DNA of 64,000 nucleotides from an uncultured Roseburia sp. (GTDB lineage Bacteria > Bacillota_A > Clostridia > Lachnospirales > Lachnospiraceae). Made by a program: the position numbers and the translations under genes. Shown here piece by piece: positions 33,811-63,933 of the stretch (within the stretch, counting starts at the first letter, position 1; the number at the start of each line of letters is the position of its first letter). Below the pieces are notes generated by a model, which saw only the letters and a program-made list of their open reading frames with translations, made no database searches and was not told where the DNA came from. The stretch lies in assembly GCA_900753715.1 (NCBI GenBank), contig CAAEAE010000112.1, forward strand, positions 14,578-78,577, given 5' to 3'.

Positions 33811-35370
33811 ATGGAGTTAAAACGGATTATACTGCATAGAAGACAGGAAAAAGGAAATGCAGTCAGCCAGATTACGCTGGACGATGACTATAATGTGCCG
33901 GATTACCGGCCGGACATTGTAAAGGTACTGAAGGAAAAGGGAGAGCTTCGTTTTGACGAAGTAAAAGCCGGAAACAGTGCACTCTGGGTGAAGGGAAGTC
34001 TGAACTTTAAGGTGCTTTACCGAAGTGAACAGGAGAATGGAGGGATCAGCTGCCTGCGCGGAGAAATCCCTTTTCAGGAAAAACTGAATATGGATGGATT
34101 ACAGGACTATGAACCGGTTCGCGTGCAGGGAGAGGTCGAGGACATCACCATCGGCGTTATCAATTCCAGAAAACTGAATGTGCGTGCGGTCGTTGTCTTA
34201 CGTGCCGTAGCGGAGGAAGAGCGGACGGAGGAACTGACCTGCGGACTTGAGGACGGAGAGGAGTATGAGCAGAAATTTAAGGAGCGCGAGGTACTACAGT
34301 TATTGCTGGCAAAAAAAGATATTTGCAGGCAGAAAAATGAAATTGTGCTTCCTTCAAGCAAACCGAATGTCCGGGAAATCCTCTGGCGCAGCATTGAACT
34401 TCGCAACGTGGAAAGCCGTCTGGGAGACGGGCGTGCGGGTGTGACCGGAGAAATCCTTTTATCGGTGCTCTACAGCGATGAGGAGGACGGCGACAGACTT
34501 CAGTGGTATGAGACGACGGTTCCGCTTGATGCCGGCACGGAGTGTGAACTTGACGAGACAGATGTGGTACATCGAATCCGGGCGGTCCCGGCGTCTATGG
34601 AAGTGGAAGTAAAGCCGGATTATGACGGAGAGGAACGGATACTGGTGCTTGAGCTTGCCTTAGAGCTTGACATCCGTGTATGGCGGGAAGAGCGTGTAGA
34701 ACTGTTAGACGATTTGTATTCCCTGAAAAAAGAAGTTGTGCCAATTCGTAAAGAGCATAAAACAGAAAGACTTCTGGTTAAAAATTATGCCAAGAGCCGG
34801 CTTGCGGAGACGATTGAACTGACGGAGCAGCAGGAAAAAATATTGCAGATATGTGCCTGTGAAGGAAAGGCAGTGATTGAACGGGAAGAGCTGACACCGG
34901 AGGGCGTGCTTGCGGAAGGAATTGTTCAGGTGGAGCTGCTTTACATAACGACGGATGACCATATGCCGGTTGGCGTCGTAAAAGAAATCTTCCCGTTCCG
35001 GCAGGTTGTGGAGGTCTCCGATATGCCGGCACAGACGCGGGTGGAATTAGATGGCGGTATTGAGCAGTTGTCTGCCATTATGCTTGACCAGGAACATATT
35101 GAAATCAAAGCACTCATTCATCTGGACTTGATGGCATTTGCGGAGGAGACGGCAGACAACATCGAATCTATCGAGGAAAAAGCACTTGATATGGAGAAGC
35201 TGAAAAATAGTCCGGGACTTACCGGATATATTGCAAGGGAAGGGGATGAGCTGTGGAATATTGCAAAAGAAAATCATACTACGGTGCGTTCCATCATGAA
35301 TACAAATCCTATCAAGGGAGAGAGACTTTCTGCGGGAGAACGCATCCTGATTGTAAAACAGGTCGGATAA
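33811..35370 (+). CDS. SPOCS (DUF3794) and LysM protein
   Basis: 519 residues, no signal peptide. Repeated SPOCS/DUF3794 domains cover about 30-140, 170-290 and 330-430, seen as alternating hydrophobic strands such as LNMDGLQDYEPVRVQGEVED. A C-terminal LysM domain (~470-519; YIAREGDELWNIAKENHTT) binds peptidoglycan. DUF3794-LysM proteins are linked to spore coat/cortex in Clostridia (family knowledge), so this supports a sporulating host. It is followed by a hairpin terminator. Confidence 0.87.
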   Translation: MELKRIILHRRQEKGNAVSQITLDDDYNVPDYRPDIVKVLKEKGELRFDEVKAGNSALWVKGSLNFKVLYRSEQENGGISCLRGEIPFQEKLNMDGLQDYEPVRVQGEVEDITIGVINSRKLNVRAVVVLRAVAEEERTEELTCGLEDGEEYEQKFKEREVLQLLLAKKDICRQKNEIVLPSSKPNVREILWRSIELRNVESRLGDGRAGVTGEILLSVLYSDEEDGDRLQWYETTVPLDAGTECELDETDVVHRIRAVPASMEVEVKPDYDGEERILVLELALELDIRVWREERVELLDDLYSLKKEVVPIRKEHKTERLLVKNYAKSRLAETIELTEQQEKILQICACEGKAVIEREELTPEGVLAEGIVQVELLYITTDDHMPVGVVKEIFPFRQVVEVSDMPAQTRVELDGGIEQLSAIMLDQEHIEIKALIHLDLMAFAEETADNIESIEEKALDMEKLKNSPGLTGYIAREGDELWNIAKENHTTVRSIMNTNPIKGERLSAGERILIVKQVG

Positions 35371-44174: not shown

Positions 44175-44412
44175 AAGACGGAAAAGAGTAGTTTAGTTGG
44201 AAACATCCAGAGAGAATAACATTTGGTGGAAGTTATTTATGCGGAAAGCAGACGAAAACCATTCCAGAGCTGTAATGCCGAAATGATGTAAGTGTTACCG
44301 TATGCCTGCGTTAAAGGATAGGATTTGATAGAATCTGAAGTGAAAAGTTAAGGTGGAACCGTGCTAAATGCACCCTTAAGACGATGCGATGATTGTCTTA
44401 TGGGTGCTTTTC
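44175..44412 (+). ncRNA. T-box leader, threonine-specific
   Basis: The 352-base gap upstream of thrS holds a T-box riboswitch. The T-box sequence AAGGTGGAACCGTGC is at 44350-44364. The specifier is most likely ACC (44297-44299), a Thr codon, in GTGTTACCGTATGCC. The terminator pairs GCACCCTTAAGAC (from 44370) with GTCTTATGGGTGC (to 44407), then TTTT. Uncharged tRNA-Thr would open the terminator and allow thrS expression. The 5' boundary is approximate. Confidence 0.88.
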
Positions 44413-44465
44413 TTATGTTGTTTCAAAAAATGGCAGAAGACCAAAAAAGAAAGGAGCAACAGATT

Positions 44466-46232
44466 ATGAAGGTTCTACGAAAAAACGGAGAAATTGTAGA
44501 AGCAGGTTTTGAAGAACAGGAGGGAAAGAAAGCATTTTGGCATACGAGTGCGCATGTATTTGCACAGGCGGTAAAACGTCTGTACCCGGAAACGAAATGT
44601 GCGATTGGACCGGCAATTGAAAATGGATTCTATTATGATTTTCAGTTTGCGTTTCCTTTTTCAGAAGCAAACCTAAAGGAAATTGAAGAAGAGATGAGAA
44701 AGATTGTAAAAGAGTCGCTTTCAGTGCAGGTCTGTGAAAAGTCAAAGGAAGAAGCGCTTCGTTTCATGGAGAAGGCAGATGAAAAGTACAAAATGGAATT
44801 GATTGAAGAGTTGGATGACGCAGAACAAATCAGTTTTTATAAGCAGGGGGAATATGAAGAATTTTGTGCAGGTCCGCACATTACAAATGTCTGCCATATT
44901 AAGGCTGTCAAATTACTGTCGGTTGCAGGTGCATACTGGAGAGGAAATGAGCAGAATCAGATGCTTACGAGAATCTATGGGATATCTTTTCCAAAGGCAT
45001 CGCAGTTGGAAGAATATCTGCATATGCTGGAAGAAGCAAAGGCAAGAGACCATAGAAAATTAGGAAAGGAACTGGGAATATTTACGATTTTTGATGAGGG
45101 ACCGGAATTACCGGTATTTTTGCCGAAGGGGATGGTACTGAAAAATCTGCTCATTGATTATTGGAGAAAGATTCATCATAGAGAAGGATATGTGGAAGTT
45201 TCTACGCCGATTATGTTAGAGAGAAGTCTCTGGGAGACGTCAGGACACTGGGATTTTTATAGGGATAGCATGTATTCCCTTAAGGTAGAGGGCGATGATT
45301 ATGCAATTAAGCCGATGAGCTGTCCGGGTGGAATGTTAGTGTATAAACTGGAGCCAAAATCTTATAAGGAGCTTCCTATAAGAATGGCAGAACTTGGGCT
45401 TGTGCATCGTAATGAAAAATCAGGAACACTGCATGGCCTTATGCGGGTACGTGCGTTTACGCAGGATGACGCGCACATTTTTATGAGAGAAGATCAGGTA
45501 GTGGACGAAATAAAAGGAGTGATGCGTCTTATTGATGAGGTTTACCAGAAATTTGGTTTTTCTTATGAAATAGAATTGTCAACGAGGCCGGAACATTCCA
45601 TAGGAAGTGATGAGGATTGGGAACTTGCTACAAATGCCCTGGCTCAAGCGGTTTGCGGGATGGGAAAATCTTATGTGGTAAATGAAGGAGATGGTGCATT
45701 TTATGGGCCAAAGCTGGATTTCCATTTAAAAGATTCAATCGGCAGAACGTGGCAGTGCGGAACGATTCAGCTCGATTTCCAGCTTCCGCAGAGGTTTGAT
45801 ATTGATTATGTTGGGGCAGACGGAGAAAAGCATCGCCCGATTATGCTGCACAGGGTTGTATTTGGTTCCATTGAACGTTTTATCGGTATTCTGATAGAGC
45901 ATTATGCAGGAAAATTTCCTGTGTGGATTGCACCGGTACAGGTCAAGATTCTTCCTGTTTCGGATAAATACAATGATTATGCAAAGAAAGTTGTTGCGAA
46001 TCTGGAGGAGATGGATATCCGGGTGGAACTGGATTCCAGAAATGAAAAATTGGGATATAAGATTCGAGAGGCGCGGATGGAAAAAGTTCCTTATATGATT
46101 ATTATTGGCGAGAATGAACAAAATAAAGCTCTGGTATCCGTAAGAAAAAGAGATGGGGAGGCTGATAAACAGGACTTAGGCGAAATGCGATTAGAAGATT
46201 TTGTGGAACTGGTGAAGAGAGATGAAGAATAA
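44466..46232 (+). CDS. thrS: Threonyl-tRNA synthetase lacking the TGS domain
   Basis: 588 residues from ATG 44466, after AAAGGAG. An in-frame start at 44361 would translate the T-box terminator. The usual ~60-residue N-terminal TGS domain is absent. The editing domain begins at once (His26/His30 in HTSAH; FCAGPH). The catalytic core has SCPGGM, RMAELGLVHRNEKSG, and LHRVVFGSIERF; the anticodon-binding domain is at ~490-588. It charges tRNA-Thr. The short form may be a second ThrRS, as often found with T-box control or antibiotic resistance (inference). It ends just before the spoIIID 5' half. Confidence 0.93.
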   Translation: MKVLRKNGEIVEAGFEEQEGKKAFWHTSAHVFAQAVKRLYPETKCAIGPAIENGFYYDFQFAFPFSEANLKEIEEEMRKIVKESLSVQVCEKSKEEALRFMEKADEKYKMELIEELDDAEQISFYKQGEYEEFCAGPHITNVCHIKAVKLLSVAGAYWRGNEQNQMLTRIYGISFPKASQLEEYLHMLEEAKARDHRKLGKELGIFTIFDEGPELPVFLPKGMVLKNLLIDYWRKIHHREGYVEVSTPIMLERSLWETSGHWDFYRDSMYSLKVEGDDYAIKPMSCPGGMLVYKLEPKSYKELPIRMAELGLVHRNEKSGTLHGLMRVRAFTQDDAHIFMREDQVVDEIKGVMRLIDEVYQKFGFSYEIELSTRPEHSIGSDEDWELATNALAQAVCGMGKSYVVNEGDGAFYGPKLDFHLKDSIGRTWQCGTIQLDFQLPQRFDIDYVGADGEKHRPIMLHRVVFGSIERFIGILIEHYAGKFPVWIAPVQVKILPVSDKYNDYAKKVVANLEEMDIRVELDSRNEKLGYKIREARMEKVPYMIIIGENEQNKALVSVRKRDGEADKQDLGEMRLEDFVELVKRDEE

Positions 46233-46246
46233 TTATAGCTGATAGT

Positions 46247-46272
46247 ATAAACGAAAATCCCCTGCATACAAT
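46247..46272 (+). promoter_or_regulatory. Candidate sigma-E promoter of spoIIID
   Basis: CATACAAT (46265-46272) equals the mother-cell sigma-E -10 consensus. ATAAA (46247-46251), 13 bases upstream, is a fair -35. The start would lie about 20 bases before the TTG start codon. B. subtilis spoIIID is sigma-E dependent, which supports the assignment. Confidence 0.5.
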
Positions 46273-46302
46273 GTAACAACAAGCATTGCAGGGGATTTTT
46301 TT
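46254..46302 (+). terminator. thrS terminator
   Basis: AAATCCCCTGCA pairs with TGCAGGGGATTT followed by T to about 46302, with a 20-base loop. The loop contains CATACAAT, which looks like a sigma-E -10 element for spoIIID. Confidence 0.9.
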
Positions 46303-46522
46303 GAAAAGTTATATTGAAGAAAGAGCCATGGAGATTGCCCGATATATTATTGACAATAACACCACTGTGCGTCAGGCTGCGAAACATTTTGGGATTAGCA
46401 AGAGTACGGTACATGCGGTTGTAACAATAAAGAACGATATAAAAACAAAATCATATGGAGAATTGAATAGAACTGAAACAAGGGCACTCTCGGGTAGATA
46501 TCAGGGAGTGCTTTTGCTATAA
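46301..46522 (+). CDS. spoIIID: Interrupted spoIIID, 5' half (sporulation regulator SpoIIID, N-terminus)
   Basis: From TTG 46301 (AGGGGA six bases upstream) the first 38 codons, to 46414, encode SpoIIID: KSYIEERAMEIARYII, then TVRQAAKHFGISKSTVH. Homology stops at codon CAT 46412-46414; from there the frame reads unrelated residues (AVVTIKNDIK) and stops at 46522. The rest of the gene is at 54447-54590. SpoIIID is a mother-cell DNA-binding protein acting after sigma-E. The break falls in the recognition helix, so the integrated form cannot make active protein. No mutation is seen before the break. Confidence 0.88.
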   Translation: MKSYIEERAMEIARYIIDNNTTVRQAAKHFGISKSTVHAVVTIKNDIKTKSYGELNRTETRALSGRYQGVLLL

Positions 46523-46523
46523 T
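46484..46523 (+). terminator. Terminator fused to an extended -10 promoter, copy 2
   Basis: GCACTCTC (46484-46491) pairs with GGGAGTGC (46504-46511), followed by TTTT and TGC-TATAAT (hexamer 46518-46523). It resembles the module at 43545-43583 over about 40 bases. It insulates the element's first gene from spoIIID/thrS transcription and supplies a promoter. Confidence 0.65.
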
Positions 46524-46564
46524 GAAATCAGGTAACCTTGAGTATTGGTGAGGGGAGGTGCAAA

Positions 46565-47344
46565 ATGACAGGAATATATGATTGCTTTGGTTATGGCCCG
46601 GGATATGATATCTCTTTTGAAGAAAGGTACAAATTGATTAGAAAAGCGGGATTTGATTGTGTAATGTTATGGTGGAGCAATCAGTTTGGGAGAGGAGACG
46701 GTTATCAAGAGGATGTAAGACTAGCCAGAAGTGCAGGTTTATTTGTAGAAAATATCCATGCGCCTGTGCATGAACAGAATAATCTTTCACTGGACAATTT
46801 GAGTGGAGAAAGCGTATTTCAAAGTTATCTACAATGTGTAGCGGATTGCTGTGAATATGATATACCAACCATGGTAATACATTTGCCAAATGATAATAAT
46901 CCTTTAAATCAAACAGGAATCAGACGGTTGGCAGAACTTATAAACAAGGCAGAACAAAAGAATATTCAGATTGCTTTTGAAAATTTAAGTAACATTAAAA
47001 ATTTGAAAGTGGTGTTAAATAAATTCACTTCAAATAATGTAGGCTATTGTTATGATAGTTGTCATCATATAAATTATGCACCGGATGAAGATTTGTTAGG
47101 AATGTATGGAAACCGACTGATGGCAATTCATTTACAAGATAACAGCGGTAGCCATAATCAACATCAATTACCATTCGATGGCAATATTAACTGGGATACA
47201 GTTATGGAAAAAATTGCCTGTACAGGATACCGGGGAGCTACAACTTTAGAACCAATGAATTGGGATTATTCTCATTTAAATATCTGTCAGTTTTTGGAAT
47301 TGGCTTATGAAAGGGCAAAAAGACTTGATTACTTGCGAAAATAA
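46565..47344 (+). CDS. Sugar phosphate isomerase/epimerase-like TIM barrel protein
   Basis: 259 residues from ATG 46565, behind GGGGAGGTG. The AP-endonuclease-2/xylose-isomerase-like barrel is shown by GFDCVMLWWS, VENIHAPVH, MVIHLPND, IQIAFENL (metal Glu), VGYCYDSCHHI (Asp, His), MAIHLQDNSG and TTLEPMNWD. These include the metal-binding Glu, Asp and His positions. The real substrate is unknown. It lies inside the spoIIID element, first gene from the left end, and its codons are AT-rich. Confidence 0.85.
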   Translation: MTGIYDCFGYGPGYDISFEERYKLIRKAGFDCVMLWWSNQFGRGDGYQEDVRLARSAGLFVENIHAPVHEQNNLSLDNLSGESVFQSYLQCVADCCEYDIPTMVIHLPNDNNPLNQTGIRRLAELINKAEQKNIQIAFENLSNIKNLKVVLNKFTSNNVGYCYDSCHHINYAPDEDLLGMYGNRLMAIHLQDNSGSHNQHQLPFDGNINWDTVMEKIACTGYRGATTLEPMNWDYSHLNICQFLELAYERAKRLDYLRK

Positions 47345-47829
47345 TGTAGGTGATGAAAGGATGAAAACAGACGGGGAGTTCAATCAGATTTCTGATTGAT
47401 TCTGAGGGTTTGGGAGATAACTCCCAACAAGCAAAACTGCATTTTGTGTGTACAAATGCACTGCTTGCTAAGTTGTGAATATAGAAATGAAATTAAATTT
47501 GAATTTAGAAAGAAGGCAAAGGAGAGGATGCCGATTATAAAATTGTATACGGGATTGGCATTGAGACGCTTGAAGAAGATTAGTAACATAAAAGATTTTT
47601 CAAGCGTTTCTTTTTATTTTGCGACTTTGAATGGAATATGGTGTAGCTAGGAGCAGTTCATTTTTGAAAAAGTACGGTGGGAATGGACAAAAAGTCCAGT
47701 ATTTGGGGAACGTAATTTGATTTCAAGTAGGTTATGCTTAACTTAGATTAAAAGGTCTGGTCTAATCTAAGAATCTTTCTCATAGTATGGGAGAGAAGGA
47801 CAGGCAAGGTAAGGGGGTGTAGCTTTCGC
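47345..47829. other. Non-coding stretch in the element with two hairpins
   Basis: No convincing gene is seen here. ACGCTTGAA (47566-47574) pairs with TTCAAGCGT (47599-47607) followed by TTCTTTTT, a likely terminator. CTTAGATTA (47742-47750) pairs perfectly with TAATCTAAG (47763-47771). Short ORFs on either strand lack RBS and family likeness. Confidence 0.5.
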
Positions 47830-48030
47830 TTGAAACGGACGAAATTAAATTATCGTTTTCATAATCCAAATTCAGCGGAAGATACTGCAGATTTCCTGTG
47901 CAAACTTTTAATAGAAGTAAATGCCGGGAAGGTAGAGCGGGCAATAGAGGATGCTGCATTGTATGCAGAGAGTGAGGGTTACATACTAGAAAATTTATCG
48001 GAAAACACGGAAAAGTTATGTGTGGGATAA
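47830..48030 (+). CDS. Small conserved mobile-element protein
   Basis: 66 residues from TTG 47830, ten bases after AAGGGGGTG. The sequence KRTKLNYRFHNPNSAEDTAD and KLLIEVNAGKVERAIEDA matches a short hypothetical protein I know as frequent in Clostridia integrative elements near recombinases. Function unknown. Helical composition, acidic C-terminus. A weak hairpin CAAGG/CCTTG with T run (48037-48057) follows. Confidence 0.65.
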   Translation: MKRTKLNYRFHNPNSAEDTADFLCKLLIEVNAGKVERAIEDAALYAESEGYILENLSENTEKLCVG

Positions 48031-48190
48031 GAGGAGCAAGGTGAGAGCCTTGTTTTTCTTATTATGATAGTAGATGAAACGCAATCAGGTACAGTTCTAT
48101 AAATGTTATGAGGTTATAGACTATAATCAACAGAAATTTACAAAATGTGATACTACAAACTGATATATGAGATAAAAACTCAAATATTGC

Positions 48191-48218
48191 TTGCAAATAT
48201 TTGCATCAGAGATATAAT
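48191..48218 (+). promoter_or_regulatory. Promoter of the defence operon with palindrome at -35
   Basis: TTGCAA (48191-48196), 16-base spacer, TATAAT (48213-48218). TGCAAATATTTGCA (48192-48205) is a perfect 14-base palindrome over the -35, likely a repressor site. Confidence 0.65.
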
Positions 48219-48243
48219 AAAGGTATAACGGAGGGTAAAAGAT

Positions 48244-49467
48244 ATGTTATGCCAGTTTACAGTAAAAAATTTCAAAAGTATAAGAGATGAAGTGACATTT
48301 GATATGCAGGCGGCTGCAATATCGGAGCATGAGGATAGAATTATTATAGATAAAGATGAGGAAAAATATTTACCGGTGTCAGTTATTTATGGGCCAAATG
48401 GCGGGGGAAAGTCCAATGTTTTGGCTGCATTGCATACCTTGGTGGCAAAAGTGTTACGTCCTCTTTTTGCCACAGAGGATAGCGAGGAAAAGGTTTTACT
48501 TCAAAAGAAAATAATTGTGGAACCGTTTGCGTTTTCAGTGAGTAAGGATGAGCCTACAGAATTTGAATTATTCTTCCGAACCACAGTTTCAGAGTACAGA
48601 TACATTTTGCACGTAAAGCGTGATATCGTTTTATATGAGAGTTTGGATAGAGTAAAACTCGAAACAGGTAGAAAATCTGCTCTTTTTACCAGAGATGAAA
48701 ACGGCATCGTTTTAAAGGGAGCTTTTGCAAAACTGAAAGTTAGTGATGAATTATCTAAAACACTTACGCTACTTTCTTATTTAGGAATTGCTTATAAGGG
48801 AAATGTGGTGGTTAAGGATGTATTGAGTTGGTTTGAATATGGAATTGAATTCTTGAATTATGGAAATCCAATACAGGAACTTAAAATGGCTGTGTCCACA
48901 TCGGAAGAGGTGAAACAGTTAATGCTTCAGATGATTCAGGAGATGGACTTAGACATTGTAGATTTCAGAGTGGAAGAAAAAGAAAATGACAGAATAGATA
49001 TATTCACGAAGCATTGCGTAGATGATGTGGAAACAGAAATCAATTTGTTTGATGAATCCAGTGGAACACAGAAATTATTTGGATTACTTCCGTTTATTGC
49101 AGAAAGCCTGATTACCGGAACCGTGCTTGTGATTGATGAGTTGGACGCAAAAATCCATCCAGTTTTACTTCGTCATATTATTATGATGTTCAATAATATG
49201 AGTATCAATAGACATAAAGCCCAGTTGATTTTCACATCCCACGATCTGTCAACGATGAACAGCGAAGTATTCCGCAGAGATGAAATCTGGTTTGTGGCAA
49301 AAGGAAATGCACAGAATTCTAAACTTTATTCTTTGGTAGAGTTCAAGAATGAAAAAGGGGAATCTGTCAGAAAGGATGCCAAGTTCGACAAGCAATATCT
49401 GGAAGGTAAGTACGGCGCTGATCCGTACCTCAGAAGAATTATAGATTGGGGGAAAGTGAATGCCTAA
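48244..49467 (+). CDS. AAA family ATPase, RloA/AbiLi-like
   Basis: 407 residues. ABC/SMC-type ATPase: FTVKNFKSIRDEVTFDM start, Walker A GPNGGGKS (50-57), signature-like DESSGTQKLFGLLPF, Walker B LVIDELD (Asp298/Glu299), and the H-loop FTSHDLSTMN. Such single-gene OLD/AAA_15-type ATPases form the first subunit of the AbiL abortive-infection pair with RloB. RBS GGAGGG before ATG 48244. Its stop overlaps the RloB gene by eight bases. Phage-defence role is inferred from family and pairing. Confidence 0.88.
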   Translation: MLCQFTVKNFKSIRDEVTFDMQAAAISEHEDRIIIDKDEEKYLPVSVIYGPNGGGKSNVLAALHTLVAKVLRPLFATEDSEEKVLLQKKIIVEPFAFSVSKDEPTEFELFFRTTVSEYRYILHVKRDIVLYESLDRVKLETGRKSALFTRDENGIVLKGAFAKLKVSDELSKTLTLLSYLGIAYKGNVVVKDVLSWFEYGIEFLNYGNPIQELKMAVSTSEEVKQLMLQMIQEMDLDIVDFRVEEKENDRIDIFTKHCVDDVETEINLFDESSGTQKLFGLLPFIAESLITGTVLVIDELDAKIHPVLLRHIIMMFNNMSINRHKAQLIFTSHDLSTMNSEVFRRDEIWFVAKGNAQNSKLYSLVEFKNEKGESVRKDAKFDKQYLEGKYGADPYLRRIIDWGKVNA

Positions 49468-50158
49468 AAAAGCCGGAACTGAAAAATGGAAGAAGAAGCG
49501 TCGCCAGGAATATTTGGAGATGAAACAGTATAGGTACTATATCTTTTGTGAAGGACAGCAGACGGAACCCAATTACTTTTTAGGGTTTAAGAAGCTGATA
49601 GAGGAAAATCCGATTTACAAAGATATGGTATTGATTGAAATTGAACCATGCCAGGCAGAAACTATGCGAGTGATTGGAATGGCTGAGGACTATGTTAAGA
49701 AGAACGAGATTCAGAAGGGACAAGTTTGGTGTGTGTATGATAAGGATAGCTTTCCTGCAGAACATTTCAACGGTGTTGAGGAACGAGCCAATAGCCTGAA
49801 TAGAATTAATCCGGAATTACAGTATCATGCAGCGTGGAGTAATGAATGTATTGAGTTCTGGTTTCTGCTTCATTTTGCGTATTATACAGCGAATAACCAC
49901 AGGACAGAGTATATTTCATTCTTGAATGATAAATTCAAAGAACTGGGAATCGGAAAATATCAGAAGAATATGAATGATATTTTTACGATACTGATGGAAT
50001 ACGGGAATCCTAAGCTGGCGATCCGATACGCGAAGAGGATTATGAAAGATGGAGAGGGAAAGACACCAACGGAAATCGCACCGGGAACAAAGGTGTATGA
50101 GTTGGTGGAGGAACTGGCGAAGTATTTGCCGGAGGAAGTACAAAAAGTTATGAGATAA
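49460..50158 (+). CDS. RloB family protein (AbiLii-like), TOPRIM-like nuclease candidate
   Basis: 232 residues. Basic start (MPKKAGTEKWKKKRRQEYLE) then YYIFCEGQQTEPNYFLGF and VWCVYDKDSF: a Glu followed by DxD in the order expected for TOPRIM-like folds. SNECIEFWFLLHF is a hallmark of RloB. It is coupled to the ATPase gene by overlap. In AbiL systems the ATPase and RloB-like subunits act together to stop phage. Catalysis is inferred. Confidence 0.88.
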   Translation: MPKKAGTEKWKKKRRQEYLEMKQYRYYIFCEGQQTEPNYFLGFKKLIEENPIYKDMVLIEIEPCQAETMRVIGMAEDYVKKNEIQKGQVWCVYDKDSFPAEHFNGVEERANSLNRINPELQYHAAWSNECIEFWFLLHFAYYTANNHRTEYISFLNDKFKELGIGKYQKNMNDIFTILMEYGNPKLAIRYAKRIMKDGEGKTPTEIAPGTKVYELVEELAKYLPEEVQKVMR

Positions 50159-50173
50159 AGAAAGGGTAAAATA

Positions 50174-52702
50174 ATGATTGATTTTTCTAAAAAAATAAAA
50201 AAAGCAGTTGTGGAAAAAAGCGATAATCCGGTCGATATTTATAATGGGTTGGATCGTACAAGCGTAGCTGGACCATTGCGTGCTTCGCAAGAAATGGTAT
50301 TAAGCAAATGGTATAGCGAAAGAATAGATGATAAAGATGTAATTATTAAGTTGCATACAGGCGAAGGAAAGACATTAATTGGTCTTTTGGCATTGATGAC
50401 AAATTTAAATAGAGGAAATAGTCCGTGTATTTATGTTTGCCCCAATAAATATTTAGTGGAGCAAGTATGCAAAGAAGCAAGTAAGTTTGGAATACCAGTT
50501 TGTACAATAGGTGAAAATAATCAGCTACCAAATGATTTTGTATCTGGAAATAGAATTTTAGTTACACATGTGCAAAAGATGTTTAATGGAAAAACTATAT
50601 TCGGTACAGGTAATGCTTCCGAAAAGGTGGGAGCAATCGTACTTGATGATGCACATGCGTGTTTGGATGCTATAAGGGAATCTTTTGTGATTAGTATCAA
50701 ACGCAATTCTAATAAAGAACTGTATGAGAGTTTATTGGCAATATTTGAAGATGATTTAAAAGAACAAGGTGAAGGCACATTTTGGGATGTAAAAAATAAT
50801 GCGGATTATGAAAGCTTGATGATGATTCCTTATTGGGCATGGATTGACAAAAAATCTCAAGTGCTTAAAACGTTAGCAATGAATGAATCAAATAGTTGTG
50901 TTACATATGTTTGGCCATTGATAAAGGACAGTTTGGATAAATGCCAAGCTTTTGTGAATGGTAGTGAAATACAGATTATGCCAGTCGTTTCCCCTATTAG
51001 CTTTTTTGGAAGCTTTGCGAATGCAAAGCATAGGATATTAATGTCTGCAACGACTCAGGATGACAGCTTTTTTGTAAAAACATTGGGAATATCAATAAAT
51101 GCAATAAAGACTCCCATTGTGAATGAAAAAATGAAATGGTCTGGAGAGAAAATGCTACTCATTCCAGAATTGATAGCAGATGATTTAACAAGAGATGCAT
51201 TTATAGAAACATTTGGTAAATTTGAATATAAATTTGGGGTGGTATCTTTGACTCCGACTTTGAAAAAACAAGATTCCTATAGAGAGTTTGGATGTACATT
51301 GATTGACAAAAACAATATTGTTTTTGAAATTAATAATTTGCAACACGGTGTATACGGTAAAATGAAAGTTTTGGCAAATCGGTATGATGGAATAGATTTG
51401 CCGGATAATGCATGCAGAATACTTGTTTTGGACTCGTTACCTTTCTTCACGAATATGAATGACAAATATGAAGAAAAAGCGAGAAGAGAGTGTGAATTAA
51501 TTCAAAAGAAATTGGCTCAAAAGATTGAACAGGGATTGGGGAGAAGTGTCCGAGGAGAAAAGGATTATAGTTGTATTGTAATTATAGGATCAGAGTTGGT
51601 TAGCTTCGTGAGAAGTATAACAACAAGGAAATTGTTTTCAAAACAGACGCAAAAACAGATAGAAATAGGATTACAGATGGCTGAATGGGCTAATGAAGGG
51701 CGAGAAGAGATTTCCTTTGCGGATTTAATTTCTTTAATAAATCAATGCTTAAAACGTGACCTCGGATGGAAGAAATTCTATGAAAGTGAAATGGACAGTA
51801 TCGATGATGAAGAAGAGAATAGGGATGAAGAGTTGGGAATACTGTCATTAGAACAGAAAGCTGATAATTTCTTTATCTGTGAGAGGTATGATGATGCTAC
51901 GAAGGTGTATCAAGATATTCTGGATAAGACCAAACATGATGATAGTGAAAGAGGATGGTATTTACAGAAAATGGCGCACTGTAAATACTTTGGCAGTAAA
52001 CTTGAATCACAGAAATTGCAAAGAGGCGCTTTTGAAAAGAATTTTGAGCTGTTAAAACCAATAGAAGGAGTCTACTATAAAAAGATAGAAAATATCAATT
52101 TAAACAGGACTCAGAATATTATCAAATATATACAACAATTTCCCTCATATGAAGAACTAATGCTAGAAATAAATACTTTATGTGAACGATTGAGTTTTGG
52201 AACAGAGGCAGATGCATTTGAAAAAAACCTGGAAGAAATAGGACAGGCATTAGGATATTTAAGTCAGCGCCCAGATAAGACAATAAGAAAAGGTCCAGAC
52301 AATCTTTGGGGAATTGGTAATAATACATTTATAATGTTTGAATGCAAAAGTGAAGTTTCGCAAGGAAGAAAAGAGATTCATAAATCAGAAGTTGGACAGA
52401 TGAACAATCATTGTGGCTGGTTTGAAAAAGAGTATTTAGATGCAAAAGTTTGTAGAGTGATGATTATTCCAACGTCATACTTGGCTTATGATGCGGATTT
52501 TACACATGATGTGAAAATAATGCGAAAAAATGAAATGCAGTTATTAAGAAAAAATTTTTTAGCGTTTTTCAAGGAGTTTAAAGGATATGATATAATGTGT
52601 TTAGAGGATAAGTTTATACATGATTGCCTTGAAATGCATAGTCTGGATAATGAAAGTATAATGACGAAATATGCTGAGGATGTTAAGATTAAAGAACAAT
52701 AA
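50174..52702 (+). CDS. Superfamily 2 helicase (XPD/DinG-like) with C-terminal PD-(D/E)xK nuclease domain
   Basis: 842 residues, 15 bp after rloB, so in the same operon. Walker A is HTGEGKT (61-67) and motif II DDAH (158-161). Motif VI is seen as EQGLGRSVRGEKDYS (~450). A helical TPR-like segment is at ~555-640. The C-terminal domain has GPDNLWG (Asp709) and FECKSE (Glu723, Lys725), fitting a D...ExK nuclease centre. Stand-alone helicase-nuclease fusions are typical of anti-phage islands. I cannot match it to a named system; it may be an added module of the AbiL-like pair or act alone. Confidence 0.8.
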   Translation: MIDFSKKIKKAVVEKSDNPVDIYNGLDRTSVAGPLRASQEMVLSKWYSERIDDKDVIIKLHTGEGKTLIGLLALMTNLNRGNSPCIYVCPNKYLVEQVCKEASKFGIPVCTIGENNQLPNDFVSGNRILVTHVQKMFNGKTIFGTGNASEKVGAIVLDDAHACLDAIRESFVISIKRNSNKELYESLLAIFEDDLKEQGEGTFWDVKNNADYESLMMIPYWAWIDKKSQVLKTLAMNESNSCVTYVWPLIKDSLDKCQAFVNGSEIQIMPVVSPISFFGSFANAKHRILMSATTQDDSFFVKTLGISINAIKTPIVNEKMKWSGEKMLLIPELIADDLTRDAFIETFGKFEYKFGVVSLTPTLKKQDSYREFGCTLIDKNNIVFEINNLQHGVYGKMKVLANRYDGIDLPDNACRILVLDSLPFFTNMNDKYEEKARRECELIQKKLAQKIEQGLGRSVRGEKDYSCIVIIGSELVSFVRSITTRKLFSKQTQKQIEIGLQMAEWANEGREEISFADLISLINQCLKRDLGWKKFYESEMDSIDDEEENRDEELGILSLEQKADNFFICERYDDATKVYQDILDKTKHDDSERGWYLQKMAHCKYFGSKLESQKLQRGAFEKNFELLKPIEGVYYKKIENINLNRTQNIIKYIQQFPSYEELMLEINTLCERLSFGTEADAFEKNLEEIGQALGYLSQRPDKTIRKGPDNLWGIGNNTFIMFECKSEVSQGRKEIHKSEVGQMNNHCGWFEKEYLDAKVCRVMIIPTSYLAYDADFTHDVKIMRKNEMQLLRKNFLAFFKEFKGYDIMCLEDKFIHDCLEMHSLDNESIMTKYAEDVKIKEQ

Positions 52703-52709
52703 TTTAGAA

Positions 52710-52745
52710 AAAAAGGACTACCATTGAAAGATGGAGTCCTTTTTG
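52710..52745 (+). terminator. Terminator of the defence operon
   Basis: AAAAGGACT-A-CCAT pairs with ATGG-AGTCCTTTT, followed by more T; it separates the operon from the recombinase gene. Confidence 0.85.
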
Positions 52746-52822
52746 GTTGTAAGTGACTTAGAAATATGATATTTTAATAGATGTAACAGAATGATTTTAC
52801 AATAACAGAAAGGCCTGAAGAC

Positions 52823-54448
52823 ATGAACATCGCCGCATACTGTCGTGTATCCACAGATAAATCCGACCAACTCAACAGTCTAGAAACTCAAAAAGAGTTC
52901 TTCTTAGAATATACCAAGCGAACCGGGGACAACCTTATAAAATTATATGCAGACGAGGGTATTTCCGGAACCAAAATCAAAAATCGTAAAGAATTTCAGC
53001 GTATGCTTGCAGATGCGGAAAAGGGCTTATTCGATATGGTTGTAGTTAAGGATATTTCCCGTTTTGCCAGGAACACGGTTGACCTTTTACAAAGTGTTCG
53101 CAAACTGAAATCTCTCGGTATCGAAACACAATTCTTAACTGCCAACATGACCAGTATGGGCAACAGCGAATTTGTCTTAACTATCTTCGGTGCATTAGCC
53201 CAGGAGGAAAGCGCCAATACTTCTAAACGTATTAAATTTGGTAAAAAGATGAATGCGGAAAAGGGTCGTGTTCCGAACATCGTTTTTGGCTATGATAAGA
53301 CGATTGGAGACTATTTTAACCTTTCTATCAATGAGAACGAGGCAATGGCAATCCGGCAGATTTTTCAGTGGTATACAGAGGAAGGCTATGGCGGATCAAA
53401 GATTGCGAATATGCTCAATGAACGAGGCATCAAGACCAAGCGTGGCAACAACTGGAGCCAGAACTCCGTTTGCCGAATCTTGACTAATGAGATATACACC
53501 GGGAAAATTATCAACGGCAAAGAAGAGATTGCAGATTTTCTGACCGGTCAGAGAAAAGAAAAGGATGAATCAGAATGGCTTGTTACGCTTCGACCGGAAC
53601 TTCGGATTATTGAAGATGAAGTCTTTGATAAAGCACAGGATATTTTAAAAGGTCGTCATGATTCCTTCAAAATTACTCATGAGCGACAGAGTAACAAATA
53701 TTTATTCTCTACATTGATTAAATGCAAGGAGTGTGGTTGGTCTTTTCGCAGAACGGTTCGCCAATACAAGAATACCTATGTGCGCTGGGTGTGTTCCGGG
53801 CATAATGGGAAAGGGGCAGATAGCTGCCCGAATGCTGTGACGGTAGATGAGGAAGAACTGATCCAGGCGCTGCAGGATTATTTTCAGGAGATTCTTAGTA
53901 AGAAGAAAAAAGTAATCAATTATGTGATTAAAGAATTTCAGCGAGTATACAAAGCAAAAGATGAAAATATTGAGTACGAAAAGCAGCTAAATACAGAATT
54001 GGACAGGCTTCGCAAATCTCGTGAAAAATACATGGATATGTATACCGATGATTTGATTTCCAGAGAGGAATTGAATAAGAAAATCGGTGGGATGCGAAAA
54101 GAGATTGAACGGTTGGAGAATGAACTGAAAATGGTCTCTTATCATCTGACCAAGGGAGAACAACTGGAAGCAATTTTGAACAGCACATTCAAGCAACTGG
54201 AGGATATCACAGATGTTCATGAAATGACAAATGCACAGTTGAAGCGCCTGATTCAGAAAATCGAAGTGGACAAGGAAGGGAATGTTGATATTTACCTTCG
54301 GCTAATTGGTGATTTAGGACTGGATGAAGCTGTGTTGATTGAAAGAACAGAGAATTCCCAAGAAAACAATGATTTGGCAAGCAAATTAAACGGAAACAAC
54401 ATGAGCAGTAACATAAAAACAGCTCCAATTCGTCATGACCATACATAA
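52823..54448 (+). CDS. Large serine recombinase of the spoIIID element
   Basis: 541 residues. Resolvase domain at 1-150 with catalytic Ser10 in YCRVSTDK and the Arg pair in DISRFARN. Recombinase domain follows (GYGGSKIANMLNERGIKTKRG). A zinc ribbon (CKECGWSF...CSGHNGKGADSCPN, ~298-333) and a coiled coil (~370-450) are standard for large serine integrases. The last codons and the TAA stop lie across the right attachment site TACAT, so the C-terminus differs between integrated and excised forms. No start signal is strong; ATG 52823 follows AAAGG. It presumably excises the element. Confidence 0.95.
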   Translation: MNIAAYCRVSTDKSDQLNSLETQKEFFLEYTKRTGDNLIKLYADEGISGTKIKNRKEFQRMLADAEKGLFDMVVVKDISRFARNTVDLLQSVRKLKSLGIETQFLTANMTSMGNSEFVLTIFGALAQEESANTSKRIKFGKKMNAEKGRVPNIVFGYDKTIGDYFNLSINENEAMAIRQIFQWYTEEGYGGSKIANMLNERGIKTKRGNNWSQNSVCRILTNEIYTGKIINGKEEIADFLTGQRKEKDESEWLVTLRPELRIIEDEVFDKAQDILKGRHDSFKITHERQSNKYLFSTLIKCKECGWSFRRTVRQYKNTYVRWVCSGHNGKGADSCPNAVTVDEEELIQALQDYFQEILSKKKKVINYVIKEFQRVYKAKDENIEYEKQLNTELDRLRKSREKYMDMYTDDLISREELNKKIGGMRKEIERLENELKMVSYHLTKGEQLEAILNSTFKQLEDITDVHEMTNAQLKRLIQKIEVDKEGNVDIYLRLIGDLGLDEAVLIERTENSQENNDLASKLNGNNMSSNIKTAPIRHDHT

Positions 54449-54590
54449 AGACGTCACCGAGCGCCTTGTGCAGGTGAATCCTGCGCTTGCCCAGGAGGCA
54501 AGGAAAATTCTTGATGTCAATAAGTCGGAGCGTCATATCCGCGGCGGACTTGCCACAAGAGAGAAATATGCACACCAGCATATGCACTAG
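54435..54590 (+). CDS. spoIIID: Interrupted spoIIID, 3' half (SpoIIID C-terminus)
   Basis: From 54447 the frame reads KDVTERLVQVNPALAQEARK then LDVNKSERHIRGGLATREKY to TAG 54588-54590: 47 residues equal to the SpoIIID C-terminal part. A local ATG at 54435 could start a 51-residue peptide but has no RBS. Fused to 46301-46414 at CAT|AAA it gives STVH-KDVTE, the conserved sequence, and 85 residues in total. A terminator follows. No frameshift or stop is present, which argues that the gene remains usable after excision. Confidence 0.88.
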   Translation: MTIHKDVTERLVQVNPALAQEARKILDVNKSERHIRGGLATREKYAHQHMH

Positions 54591-54597
54591 AAGGAAG

Positions 54598-54632
54598 AGT
54601 CATCATATGGAATCCATATGGTGGCTTTTTTA
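54598..54632 (+). terminator. Terminator after spoIIID
   Basis: GTCATCATATGGA pairs with TCCATATGGTGGC (two G:T pairs) and is followed by TTTTTT. It ends the reconstituted spoIIID transcript. Confidence 0.85.
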
Positions 54633-54784
54633 CTCTACGGGCAGAATGCGCAGCACACTTTTGTTCCTTTCCGGTGTTTGGTATCGAATAATTGCGGCTG
54701 ATGTGTTATCATAGAGAAAAATGAATGGAGTACTTTTGAACTACAAGAGAGATGACAGGCAAAAACCAGGCAGGAGGAAAATGA

Positions 54785-55489
54785 ATGAGTGCATTTGTGT
54801 CATTTGAGCAGGTGGGAAAGATATATAAGACGGGAGAACTCGAGATAGAGGCACTTCATGATGTGAATTTTGAGATAGAGCAGGGGGAATTCTGCGTTAT
54901 CGTCGGGGCATCCGGCGCCGGAAAAACAACGATTTTAAATATTTTAGGCGGGATGGATACGCTCACGAGCGGACGCGTATTTTTGGACGGACAGGAGATA
55001 TCCGGTTACGATAAAAGGCAGCTTACGGCGTACAGGCGCTACGAAATCGGATTTGTGTTTCAGTTTTATAACCTCGTGCCGAACCTGACCGCAGTGGAAA
55101 ATGTGGAGCTGGCGGCGCAGATATGCAAGGAGCCGCTTGATGCGGCGGAGGTGCTTTGTGAGGTGGGACTTTCCGAGCGTCTTACGAACTTCCCGGCACA
55201 GTTGTCGGGCGGCGAGCAGCAGCGCGTGGCAATCGCGCGGGCGCTTGCGAAGAACCCGAAGCTGCTTCTCTGTGATGAGCCGACAGGGGCACTCGACTAT
55301 CAGACCGGAAAGGCAGTTTTAAAACTTTTACAGGATACTTGCCGTAAAAAGGGAAAAACGGTAATCGTGATAACGCATAACCAGGCGTTGACGGCGATGG
55401 CAGACCGCATTATCACGGTCAAGAGCGGCACGGTTGTGGATATGGTCAAAAATGAGCACATTGTGGACATTTCAGAGATTGAGTGGTAG
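54785..55489 (+). CDS. ABC transporter ATP-binding protein, MacB/LolD type
   Basis: 234 residues. Walker [10 protein letters not shown] (~41-49), Q-loop [10 protein letters not shown], signature [15 protein letters not shown], Walker [13 protein letters not shown], and H-loop VITHN. This subgroup drives FtsX-type permeases (MacB, LolD, FtsE). The large permease gene starts seven bases after its stop. An extended -10 (TGT-TATCAT, 54707-54712) lies upstream. Confidence 0.94.
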
Positions 55490-62327: not shown

Positions 62328-62358
62328 AGGAACAAATGAATTGATACAGGAGGAAGCA

Positions 62359-63933
62359 ATGGATAACGAAAAAGTAATTGTCATTGACTTTGGCGGACAG
62401 TACAATCAGCTTGTTGCAAGGCGTGTCCGGGAATGCAATGTTTACTGTGAGATATATTCCTACAAAACAGACATTAACCAGATCAAGGCGATGAATCCAA
62501 AGGGAATCATTTTGACAGGTGGTCCGAACAGTTGTTACGAGCCGAACTCTCCGACCTATTCCAAGGAGTTGTTTGAACTGGGAATTCCGGTACTCGGTCT
62601 GTGCTACGGTGCGCAGCTTATGATGCATGTGCTTGGCGGCAAGGTGGAGAAAGCTCCGGTACGCGAGTACGGCAAGACAGAGGTGTTTGTAGACACAACT
62701 TCACCGCTGTTTGGCGATGTATCTCCGACAACCATCTGCTGGATGAGCCATTTTGATTATATTTCCCAAACAGCACCGGGATTTTCGATTGCAGCGCATA
62801 CGGCTGACTGCCCGGTTGCAGCGGCTGAAAACCGTGAGAAAAATCTGTATGCAATCCAGTTCCATCCGGAGGTGCTTCATACGCAGGAGGGAACCAAGAT
62901 GCTGCACAACTTTGTACGCGGTGTCTGCGGCTGTGCCGGCACCTGGCGTATGGATTCTTTTGTGGAGCATACAATTCAGGAAATCCGGGAAAAAGTTGGC
63001 GACGGCAAGGTGCTGCTTGCACTTTCCGGCGGCGTAGATTCTTCCGTTGCAGCAGGTCTTTTGTCCCGTGCAATCGGAAAGCAGCTCACCTGCGTTTTTG
63101 TTGACCACGGTCTTTTGCGAAAAGACGAGGGCGACGAGGTGGAAGCCGTATTTGGTCCAAACGGTCAGTTTGACCTGAATTTTATCCGCGTTAATGCGCA
63201 GGAGCGCTATTATAAGAAGCTTGCCGGTGTTACGGAACCGGAGAAGAAGCGTAAGATTATCGGCGAGGAGTTCATCCGTGTTTTCGAGGAAGAAGCAAAG
63301 AAAATCGGTGCGGTGGACTTCCTTGCACAGGGAACGATTTACCCAGATGTGGTAGAGAGCGGTCTTGGCGGCGAATCGGCTGTCATCAAGTCCCACCACA
63401 ACGTAGGCGGTCTGCCGGATTTCGTTGATTTCAAGGAGATCATCGAGCCGCTTCGCAACCTGTTCAAAGACGAGGTGCGCAAGGCAGGTCTTGAGCTTGG
63501 CATTCCGGAAAACCTTGTTTTCCGTCAGCCATTCCCGGGTCCGGGTCTTGGAATCCGTATCATCGGCGAGGTGACCGCTGAGAAGGTCCGCATCGTGCAG
63601 GATGCCGACTACATCTATCGTGATGAGGTGGACAAGGCAGTTGCAGCTTACAAGAAAGAGAACGGCGTGGCACCGTCCTGGATGCCAAACCAGTATTTTG
63701 CCGCCCTTACCAATATGCGCTCCGTCGGCGTTATGGGTGATGAGCGTACCTACGACTATGCTGTGGCACTGCGTGCCGTCAACACAGTCGACTTCATGAC
63801 AGCAGAGTCCGCTGAGATTCCGTTTGAAGTATTGCAGACGGTAATGAGCAGAATTATAAACGAGGTGCGCGGAGTCAATCGGGTATTCTACGATTTGACG
63901 AGTAAGCCACCTGGAACGATTGAGTTTGAATAA
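62359..63933 (+). CDS. guaA: GMP synthase (glutamine-hydrolysing)
   Basis: 524 residues from ATG 62359 behind AGGAGG. Class I amidotransferase domain (1-190) with nucleophile Cys82 (GLCYGAQ) and His/Glu of FHPEVLH. ATP-pyrophosphatase domain with PP-loop LSGGVDSS (~220), and C-terminal dimerisation domain ([14 protein letters not shown] ... [17 protein letters not shown]). It converts XMP to GMP. Length and ends are typical. Only 67 bases follow in the window and show nothing clear. Confidence 0.97.

What the first reader, a model, noticed from the sequence alone, without database searches (positions are those of the whole stretch)
46301..54590. spoIIID is split in frame by an ~8.03-kb element that should restore the gene on excision
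Seen: residues 1-38 of SpoIIID end at 46414 and residues 39-85 begin at 54447, both intact and in frame. The joints share TACAT, and the break is inside the recognition helix (STVH | KDVTER). A large serine recombinase gene abuts the right joint. Known: the skin element interrupts sigK in Bacillus and C. difficile and is excised in the mother cell by a serine recombinase; other sporulation genes have similar insertions. I do not recall a described case at spoIIID. Inference: SpoIIID production, and so late mother-cell expression, depends on excision.
Basis: partly seen in the sequence, partly recalled or inferred. Interest (0 to 1): 0.97.

Follow-up and report, generated by a model that had tools for sequence, protein, structure and literature searches.

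The report
Mobile element splitting sporulation gene spoIIID
In what is likely a gut bacterium of the family Lachnospiraceae, an 8-kb mobile element carrying likely phage-defence genes sits inside spoIIID, a switch gene for building spores, and it is predicted to cut itself out during sporulation, which would make the gene whole again; the same kind of insertion recurs in many related bacteria.

Summary
Confirmed. spoIIID is cut after codon 38 by an 8,032-bp element bounded by TACAT; joining the flanks gives a full SpoIIID (TIGR02844 128.7 bits, cut-off 111.5). The joined 85-aa protein exists uninterrupted on 92 public contigs.

It recurs. Of 397 sampled genomes of one relative's family, 20 have both halves and no full copy, 12 of them on one contig; all 12 have a related serine recombinase (46-91% identical) at the right joint.

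A circular-type junction exists: P0126 equals P0125 plus a tail read across it.

Its stop codon is completed by spoIIID, and its conserved last codons sit at the element's other end. Insertion splits both genes; excision would restore both.

Split genomes keep spoIVA (23 of 23, against 5 of 20 without spoIIID).

Mother-cell timing is inferred: a sigma-E-like promoter precedes a conserved small gene in some relatives, but the window's match is no better than shuffled DNA. No excision was observed in this host.

The parts
44361..46232 (+). thrS, left flanking host gene
   Evidence: TIGR00418 716.8 bits; no thrS match in the held stretches of L001-L080
46265..46278 (+). CATACAATGTAACA: predicted sigma-E -10 element followed by a SpoIIID-box-like sequence, 36 nt before the spoIIID start
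   Evidence: CATACANTGTAAmA in 49 of 78 intact loci with at least 80 nt upstream; printed sigma-E -10 consensus KCATANANTN (passage of PMC3416734) and C. difficile SpoIIID box KRTAACARK (passages of PMC5025042); function untested
46301..46414 (+). spoIIID 5' part, codons 1-38 (TTG start)
   Evidence: PF12116 61.9 bits for the open frame 46301-46522, 140.7 bits for the join
46410..46414 (+). left copy of the TACAT core
46414..46470 (+). detached 18-codon C-terminal tail of the recombinase plus stop (CGCNNKERYKNKIIWRIE), joined to the gene only in the circular form
   Evidence: W-x3-stop tail in 19 of 32 left or circular ends, 0 of 64 in the other two frames
46565..47344 (+). AP_endonuc_2 / TIM-barrel protein
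   Evidence: PF01261 88.4 bits
47781..47788 (+). CATAGTAT, promoter-like box at a conserved place before the small ORF
   Evidence: TCATA 55-73 nt before the KLN codon in 15 of 17 family members; the window's own sigma-E match is not above shuffled
47830..48030 (+). 66-aa small ORF (TTG start), candidate recombination directionality factor
   Evidence: family members in 17 of 31 sequences searched, window included (L132 weak, E 0.0067); 1,328 database proteins; no Pfam family
48244..49467 (+). AAA ATPase, AbiLi-like defence protein
   Evidence: PADLOC AbiLi 287.4 bits
49460..50158 (+). RloB-like, AbiLii-like defence protein
   Evidence: PF13707 140.8 bits; AbiLii 107.3 bits
50174..52702 (+). 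DEAD helicase, candidate defence protein PDC-S28
   Evidence: PADLOC PDC-S28 1000.3 bits
52823..54448 (+). large serine recombinase, 541 aa; stop codon TAA completed by spoIIID codon 39
   Evidence: PF00239, PF07508, PF13408 all above cut-off; stop at joint +2
54442..54446 (+). right copy of the TACAT core
54447..54590 (+). spoIIID 3' part, codons 39-85 and stop
   Evidence: PF12116 78.4 bits for the stretch 54435-54587
62341..63933 (+). guaA, a common downstream neighbour of spoIIID in this family
   Evidence: NF000848 747.5 bits; guaA in the held stretch of 44 of L001-L080, downstream on the same strand in 43 (many stretches are short)

Best explanation
An 8,032-bp mobile element with its own large serine recombinase gene is inserted inside spoIIID of a likely Lachnospiraceae bacterium, and it is predicted to be excised in the sporulating mother cell, which would rejoin spoIIID in frame. 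Shown: the split, the exact joints, the uninterrupted form in near relatives, recurrent insertion at the same codon by related recombinases, circular-type junctions of relatives, and an attP site that lies inside the recombinase gene. Inferred: the recombinase with a small element-encoded directionality factor (the KLNYRFHNPN family) excises the element when that factor is made under a mother-cell sigma factor, most likely sigma-E, because sigma-E acts before SpoIIID. Excision would add a DNA-rearrangement step between sigma-E and SpoIIID in the mother cell, which dies, while the forespore keeps the element. Integration truncates the recombinase by using a spoIIID codon as its stop; excision would return its conserved tail. 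The tail probably serves the circular form, for example for integration in a new host.
For: (1) Joined halves make a complete SpoIIID, identical to a natural 85-aa protein on 92 contigs. (2) Same-codon splits: 20 of 397 family genomes have two halves and no full copy, 12 on one contig and strand; a recombinase relative lies at the right joint in 12 of 12. From the other side, 17 of the 21 genomes with a recombinase hit at E <= 1e-100 have it at a spoIIID 3' half. (3) In a class-wide draw of 391 genomes, 6 had a recombinase hit at E <= 1e-130; 3 of these 6 abut more divergent spoIIID 3' halves. (4) P0126 equals P0125 plus CGCNNTKVK, a read across the circular joint; L081 and L084 also read through an attP. 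(5) The recombinase stop is at joint +2 in the window and 8 of 11 one-contig relatives. The detached tail looks coding: W-x3-stop in 19 of 32, 0 of 64 in other frames; codon-position entropies 1.02, 0.56, 1.35. (6) SpoIVA is present in 23 of 23 genomes with a split copy against 5 of 20 genomes without spoIIID. (7) No stop codon in 14 left and 19 right split halves. (8) TCATA box 55-73 nt before the KLN codon of the small ORF in 15 of 17 family members against 4.3% of 45-nt stretches. (9) The host keeps a SipL-type gene at 33811-35370.
Against: No excision was seen in this host; its genome is not held, so a backup SpoIIID is possible, as in 3 relatives. The sigma-E consensus match before the small ORF is above shuffled DNA in only 5 of 17 family members and not in the window (9 of 14 positions, p 0.64). 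The recombinase's own upstream region looks vegetative, by eye. pN/pS of split halves (0.131 left, 0.207 right) is low, but that of the comparison halves is also low (0.12, 0.073), so it does not prove use after insertion; right halves look relaxed against intact genes (0.093). 117 of the 120 closest recombinases end as the integrated form does. The circular reads could also be tandem arrays. Two pattern scans for attP and attL in viral contigs found nothing. The attP dyad is weak in the window (11 of 22, reached by 39 of 300 random pairs). One split genome, G180, has no strong sigK or sigE match. Some related recombinases are not at spoIIID: L200 (80% identical), L204, and those of G180, G264 and G399.
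Confidence: 0.7

Rival explanations
1. The element is simply an integrative mobilizable element that uses a very conserved DNA stretch in spoIIID as attB. Insertion knocks out sporulation in that lineage and excision serves only transfer, not development.
For: Recombinases 96-100% identical are spread over many contigs, one cluster of 293 contigs named Waltera sp., so it moves often. Relatives carry Mob_Pre, MobA/MobL and RepA_N genes. The window's small-ORF promoter is not a clear sigma-E site. G180 lacks a strong sigK or sigE match.
Against: 23 of 23 genomes with a split copy keep SpoIVA against 5 of 20 without spoIIID; the 33 split halves tested are free of stops; in G231, G355 and G037 sigK is found in two halves as well (joints not read), as in species where such splits are known to be rejoined.
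Confidence: 0.2
2. A second SpoIIID elsewhere in the genome does the job, so the interruption is harmless and need not be rejoined.
For: G192, G037 and G354 have a divergent full-length paralogue, 54-61% identical to the window's protein, besides the split copy.
Against: None of the 20 two-half genomes has a full copy; in another sample 13 of 13 genomes have exactly one full-length SpoIIID (G008 also a half, G004 also a 21-bit weak hit).
Confidence: 0.08
3. Assembly artefact or chimera.
For: The source of the window is unknown and its genome is not held.
Against: Splits with the same architecture in 12 other genomes, one of them inside a 3.37-Mb contig; recombinases 99-100% identical occur on other contigs of up to 134 kb.
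Confidence: 0.02

Closest known systems
skin element of C. difficile and B. subtilis (in sigK)
   Same: Mother-cell regulator gene split by an element with a large serine recombinase; in C. difficile the recombinase is constitutive and a small factor (CD1234, 72 aa) under sigma-E and SpoIIID restricts excision to the mother cell (passages of PMC5025042).
   Different: Target is spoIIID, one tier upstream of sigK; excision could not use SpoIIID itself; cargo is likely phage defence; the recombinase is split by integration (not checked for skin).
gin element in gerE of B. cereus
   Same: Non-phage element in a small mother-cell regulator gene, serine recombinase plus small factor GirX (abstract and Discussion of PMC5595907).
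   Different: gin has three recombinases; different gene, site and host class. A second spoIIID element type seen here (G089, L149) also has three recombinase-like genes.
yin (yabG), vfbin (spoVFB), SP-beta (spsM)
   Same: Sporulation genes interrupted by elements (Introduction of PMC10747680); yin is described there as excised, SP-beta as excised in the abstract start of PMC4191935.
   Different: Not the SpoIIID regulator; spoIIID is not in that list.
SCC cassettes (ccr recombinases)
   Same: Large serine recombinases, one fixed chromosomal docking gene, tandem copies (partly recalled, partly PMC5595907 Discussion); best NCBIfam hit is CcrB, far below cut-off (162.9 of 900).
   Different: Docking gene is a sporulation regulator and is really interrupted; recombinase fails the Ccr cut-offs.
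Elements whose attP lies in a gene of their own (archaeal SSV-type integrases; integration-dependent immunity of mycobacteriophages), recalled, not from a call
   Same: Integration changes an element protein because attP is inside its gene.
   Different: Here it is a bacterial large serine recombinase that loses a short conserved tail, and its new stop codon comes from the host gene that it splits.

Membership tests
Sporulation gene-intervening element (skin-like) | Sporulation gene split in frame at a short shared core | tested here: met
Sporulation gene-intervening element (skin-like) | Site-specific recombinase encoded in the element next to a joint | tested here: met
Sporulation gene-intervening element (skin-like) | Uninterrupted gene exists in relatives | tested here: met
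   P0001, 100% identical; L001-L080
Sporulation gene-intervening element (skin-like) | Excised circle can form | tested here: inconclusive
   Circular-type junctions in relatives P0126, L081, L084; tandem arrays not excluded; none for this exact element
Sporulation gene-intervening element (skin-like) | Excision restricted to the sporulating mother cell | not testable with these tools
   Only promoter-like hints, not met in the window
Sporulation gene-intervening element (skin-like) | Host sporulates | tested here: inconclusive
   SipL-type gene in the window; SpoIVA in 23 of 23 relatives with a split copy; host itself unknown
SCC (ccr) cassette | CcrA, CcrB or CcrC recombinase | tested here: not met
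   CcrB 162.9 of 900 bits, CcrC 141.6 of 900; no CcrA hit listed
Prophage | Phage structural or replication genes | tested here: not met
   No such gene among the 6 element proteins scanned with Pfam and NCBIfam; PHROGs, run on 3 of the 6, gave integrase-type families for the recombinase and only E >= 0.07 for the TIM barrel; recombinases in phage records at most 56% identical

The most novel reading that the evidence does not exclude
spoIIID is a general docking gene for defence-carrying integrative elements across Clostridia, and docking is a reciprocal gene swap: the element splits spoIIID while spoIIID supplies the stop codon that cuts the tail off the element's recombinase, and one recombination event in the mother cell restores both genes. 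The recombinase thus reads its own integration state in its C-terminus, and spore formation is gated by a DNA rearrangement between sigma-E and SpoIIID, upstream of the known sigK and gerE rearrangements.
Probability: 0.5. Interest if true: 0.92.

Novelty: new variant of a known kind. Interest (0 to 1): 0.86.

Why it matters
SpoIIID is the mother-cell regulator between sigma-E and sigma-K. With sigK and gerE already known to be split in some species, SpoIIID, SigK and GerE would each have a documented intervening element. The recurrence here (20 two-half genomes of 397 sampled) would mean that spore formation in many gut Clostridia hinges on a mobile element, which bears on how these hard-to-sporulate commensals spread. 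A terminal cell that can afford to lose DNA gives such elements, here carrying likely phage-defence genes, a harmless place to live. The reciprocal split gives a testable way for a recombinase to know whether it is integrated.

Tried and rejected
Considered and rejected: prophage (no phage genes found in the proteins scanned); SCC membership (cut-offs not met); a second spoIIID in the window (none); selection on the halves as proof of use (pN/pS of comparison halves is equally low); the window's own small-ORF promoter as a sigma-E site (not above shuffled); a structure of the candidate directionality factor (mean pLDDT 65.7; no fold search made). Pattern scans for attP and attL in viral contigs gave nothing. 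SpoIIID in viral contigs gave 4 loci (L151-L154), not studied. The recombinase in plasmids was at most 32% identical. A guaA search in the genus of G002 (8 genomes) gave 82% DNA identity at best for a full-length match and did not name the host.

Dropped before counting: G128 from the two-half set, because its hit is cut by a contig end. Seven single-half genomes were not counted as split; four (G016, G265, G367, G405) end in att-type joints, G209 and G181 were not resolved, G362 is divergent. Seven genomes with only weak hits (E above 1e-6) were left out. Class counts were made by hand from its listing, taking E below 1e-30 as full-length. In one search the 'redundant' comparison group (9 left, 4 right halves) includes L185 and L186, whose other copy is a divergent paralogue. 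Halves of odd length or outside the two groups were left out there.

Cargo was scanned for only part of the elements: 20 of the 75 ORFs listed (recombinases included in the 75) were given to PADLOC, of which 8 hit at E <= 1e-10 (in L131, L135, L138, L141); 10 were given to Pfam.

Papers: PMC5595907 abstract and Discussion; PMC10747680 Introduction; passages of PMC5025042, PMC3789822, PMC6957869, PMC11913394, PMC3416734, PMC3335513, PMC5027557; others only as search listings. PMC9210971 was not held.
Full report
OBSERVATION. Reading 45800-55200 and joining the flanks confirms every coordinate. SpoIIID codons 1-38 end at 46414, codons 39-85 begin at 54447, and TACAT is at 46410-46414 and 54442-54446, with 8,032 bp between joints. 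The join restores KSTVHKDVTER. TIGR02844 scores 54.9 and 72.4 bits for the halves and 128.7 for the join, cut-off 111.5. The gene is likely the family's usual spoIIID: guaA lies in the held stretch of 44 of the 80 best relatives, downstream on the same strand in 43 (many stretches are short), and at 62341 in the window; thrS, the left neighbour in the window, was found in none of them. A sigma-E type -10 (GCATACAATG against the printed KCATANANTN) followed by a SpoIIID-box-like sequence lies 36 nt upstream of the TTG start. That arrangement is found in 49 of 78 intact loci. So promoter and 5' half sit left of the element, the 3' half right of it.

THE EMPTY SITE. A 100% identical 85-aa SpoIIID is held on 92 contigs, the longest 372,649 bases (P0001). 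The nearest named protein among the 120 listed is of Roseburia intestinalis, 94%, so the host is likely a Lachnospiraceae; its own genome is not held.

CARGO. Between the joints lie a TIM-barrel protein, a 66-aa ORF, an AbiLi-like ATPase with an AbiLii/RloB-like partner, a helicase matching the candidate defence family PDC-S28 over its whole length (1000 bits), and a 541-aa large serine recombinase with three recombinase domains. GC is 0.364 against 0.438 and 0.465 outside.

RECURRENCE. PF12116 was sought in 397 genomes drawn from the family of G001, the genome of the best locus L001: 247 matched. By hand count of that listing, 212 have a match with E below 1e-30 (taken as full-length), 28 only half-strength matches and 7 only weak ones. 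Of the 28, 21 had two halves; one (G128) is a contig-end cut, leaving 20. In 12 the halves are on one contig, same strand, in order, with 3.5-75 kb between them. Sequence at the joints shows the same codon in these 12 and a relative of the window's recombinase at the right joint in all 12 (46-91% identical; stop codon from 85 bp before to 2 bp past the joint in the 11 measured). Three more genomes have a split copy plus a divergent full paralogue: G037 and G354 with both halves, G192 with the right half alone, next to guaA and behind a recombinase 97% identical to the window's. Seen from the recombinase, 21 of the 397 genomes have a hit at E <= 1e-100; in 17 it lies at a spoIIID 3' half. In G354 the half is 1.8 kb away, and in G180, G264 (contig end) and G399 none is near.

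L141 (G402) has a 90% identical recombinase and the same AbiLi/RloB pair plus a restriction-modification pair and AriAB; L138 has AbiH, L131 PD-T4-3. L134 and L135 carry relaxase genes and L135 and L138 RepA_N, so some of these are integrative mobilizable elements.

In a class-wide draw of 391 genomes 6 had a recombinase hit at E <= 1e-130. Three (L201-L203) abut spoIIID 3' halves only 46-60% identical to the window's; L205 has a spoIIID 5' half nearby in the opposite orientation; L200, whose recombinase is 80% identical, and L204 have no spoIIID part in the 1.5 kb or so held around them. A fecal record of 6.4 kb labelled as phage (L199) also runs from a 56% identical recombinase into a SpoIIID-like 3' half. 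Three genomes (G089, G145, G356) are split a few bases further on by a different system; L149 there has three recombinase-like genes (23-26% identical).

COPIES THAT ARE NOT INTERRUPTED. In 8 of the 80 loci a complete spoIIID has an extra half next door: left halves in L010 (two), L015, L026, L054, L060, L078, right halves in L025 and L046. The left ones end in the same kind of element left-end sequence, L010 and L060 with AbiL genes between. So some lineages keep the element and a whole gene. The window does not have this arrangement.

RECIPROCAL SPLIT. In the window and 8 of 11 one-contig relatives the recombinase stop codon is at joint +2: CAT ACA T|AA in the window, the AA belonging to spoIIID codon 39. 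Read in the same frame, the opposite end of the element continues with a peptide: CGCNNKERYKNKIIWRIE in the window, YGSNNIERFVWVIE in L136, YGSNKIERLIWRIK in L054. Of 32 distinct left or circular ends (30 left ends, L081, L084), 19 end in W-x-x-x-stop in that frame; 0 of 64 do so in the other two frames. Lengths are 14 (12 cases), 18 (6) or 13 codons (1), and the mean entropies at codon positions 1, 2, 3 of the last six codons are 1.02, 0.56, 1.35, the pattern of coding sequence. The ends are related to one another, which this test does not correct for. Thirteen ends do not have it: L132 and L137 (other recombinase subfamilies), L122, L126 and L129 (second site type), and L103, L104, L116, L120, L131, L133, L139, L140. 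The first part of the tail overlaps the inverted-repeat arm, so its conservation may be DNA-binding; the W-x3 part lies beyond. The joined form is seen in L081 and L084 and in P0126, which equals P0125 to its last residue and then adds CGCNNTKVK. Of 120 recombinases at least 96% identical, 117 end in a T residue as the integrated form does; the others are P0126, P0220 (ends HTYG, a possible second circular form) and P0160 (runs on in another frame). This shows that the circular-type junction exists for a very close relative; a tandem array could give the same junction.

IS IT DEVELOPMENTAL? The 23 genomes with a split copy (20 plus G192, G037, G354) all have SpoIVA (dropped G128 has it too); of the first 20 listed genomes without any spoIIID hit, 5 have it strongly and one (G075) only below the cut-off. 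So the split gene behaves like a present gene, not a lost one. In the sigK search most split genomes have a strong match, G180 has none, and G231, G355 and G037 show sigK in two halves. A small ORF of one family (KLNYRFHNPN) was found in 17 of 31 sequences searched, some of them only element ends; a TCATA box lies 55-73 nt before its KLN codon in 15 of 17. In L145, L139 and L084 the box with its -35 matches the sigma-E consensus (recalled form kmATATT/CATACAnT) at 12-13 of 14 positions; overall 5 of 17 exceed shuffled DNA at p <= 0.05, against 1 of 15 upstream regions of the recombinase; the window does not (9 of 14, p 0.64). In C. difficile the analogous small factor is the mother-cell switch and the recombinase is constitutive (PMC5025042 passages). 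That makes the small ORF the best candidate directionality factor, by analogy only. A factor that needed SpoIIID, as CD1234 does, could not work here, so sigma-E alone is the most economical guess.

WHAT ARGUES AGAINST. pN/pS of split halves (0.131, 0.207) is not separable from that of the comparison halves (0.12, 0.073), and right halves look relaxed against intact ones (0.093); insertions are probably recent. 0 of 33 split halves carry a stop, 1 of 9 comparison left halves does. The attP dyad stands out in 9 of 11 one-contig relatives (at most 3 of 300 random pairs as good), not in L131 or L139, nor in the window (39 of 300). No excision was observed in the host.

NOVELTY. Eight paper searches aimed at this question listed no report of an element in spoIIID; of the papers that they listed I opened only a few (named in Tried and rejected). 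The list in PMC10747680 names sigK, spsM, spoVFB and gerE, and adds yabG. The library is open-licence only. The kind (sporulation gene-intervening element) is known; the target tier, the spread over Clostridia, the defence cargo and the reciprocal split of recombinase and spoIIID are new to me. The SSV and mycobacteriophage parallels are recalled.

Noticed in passing
G231 C1 679202/659043; G355 C19/C68; G037 C62; G043 C32; G046 C14: sigK is in two halves in these genomes, in G231, G355 and G037 together with a split spoIIID; joints not read.
   Followed up: no
L149 (G089), L150 (G356), L126 (G145): A second element type splits spoIIID a few bases downstream of the first (left ..GATGATGGTGTCATAATA); L149 has three recombinase-like genes before the joint.
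   Followed up: partly
L178 (G192), L103 (G354), L104 (G037): A divergent SpoIIID paralogue, 54-61% identical to the window's, exists in three genomes with a split main copy.
   Followed up: partly
L010, L015, L025, L026, L046, L054, L060, L078: Complete spoIIID with an extra half copy and element remnants next door, as if elements accumulate beside a rebuilt gene.
   Followed up: partly
window 46259-46294: A terminator-like hairpin after thrS overlaps the predicted sigma-E -10 element and reaches the region before the spoIIID start; similar inverted repeats precede spoIIID in relatives (by eye).
   Followed up: no
window 33811-35370: SipL-type protein: three SPOCS stretches and a LysM domain, a spore coat morphogenesis type, suggesting a sporulating host.
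   Followed up: partly
upstream of the recombinase, window 52780-52822 and relatives: A GATGTAACAGAACG-like sequence resembling an att half-site lies between a promoter-like TATAAT and the recombinase start in many elements, perhaps for self-regulation (by eye).
   Followed up: no
PMC5027557, passage: Clostridial phages are reported to carry their own spoIIID and sigE genes.
   Followed up: no
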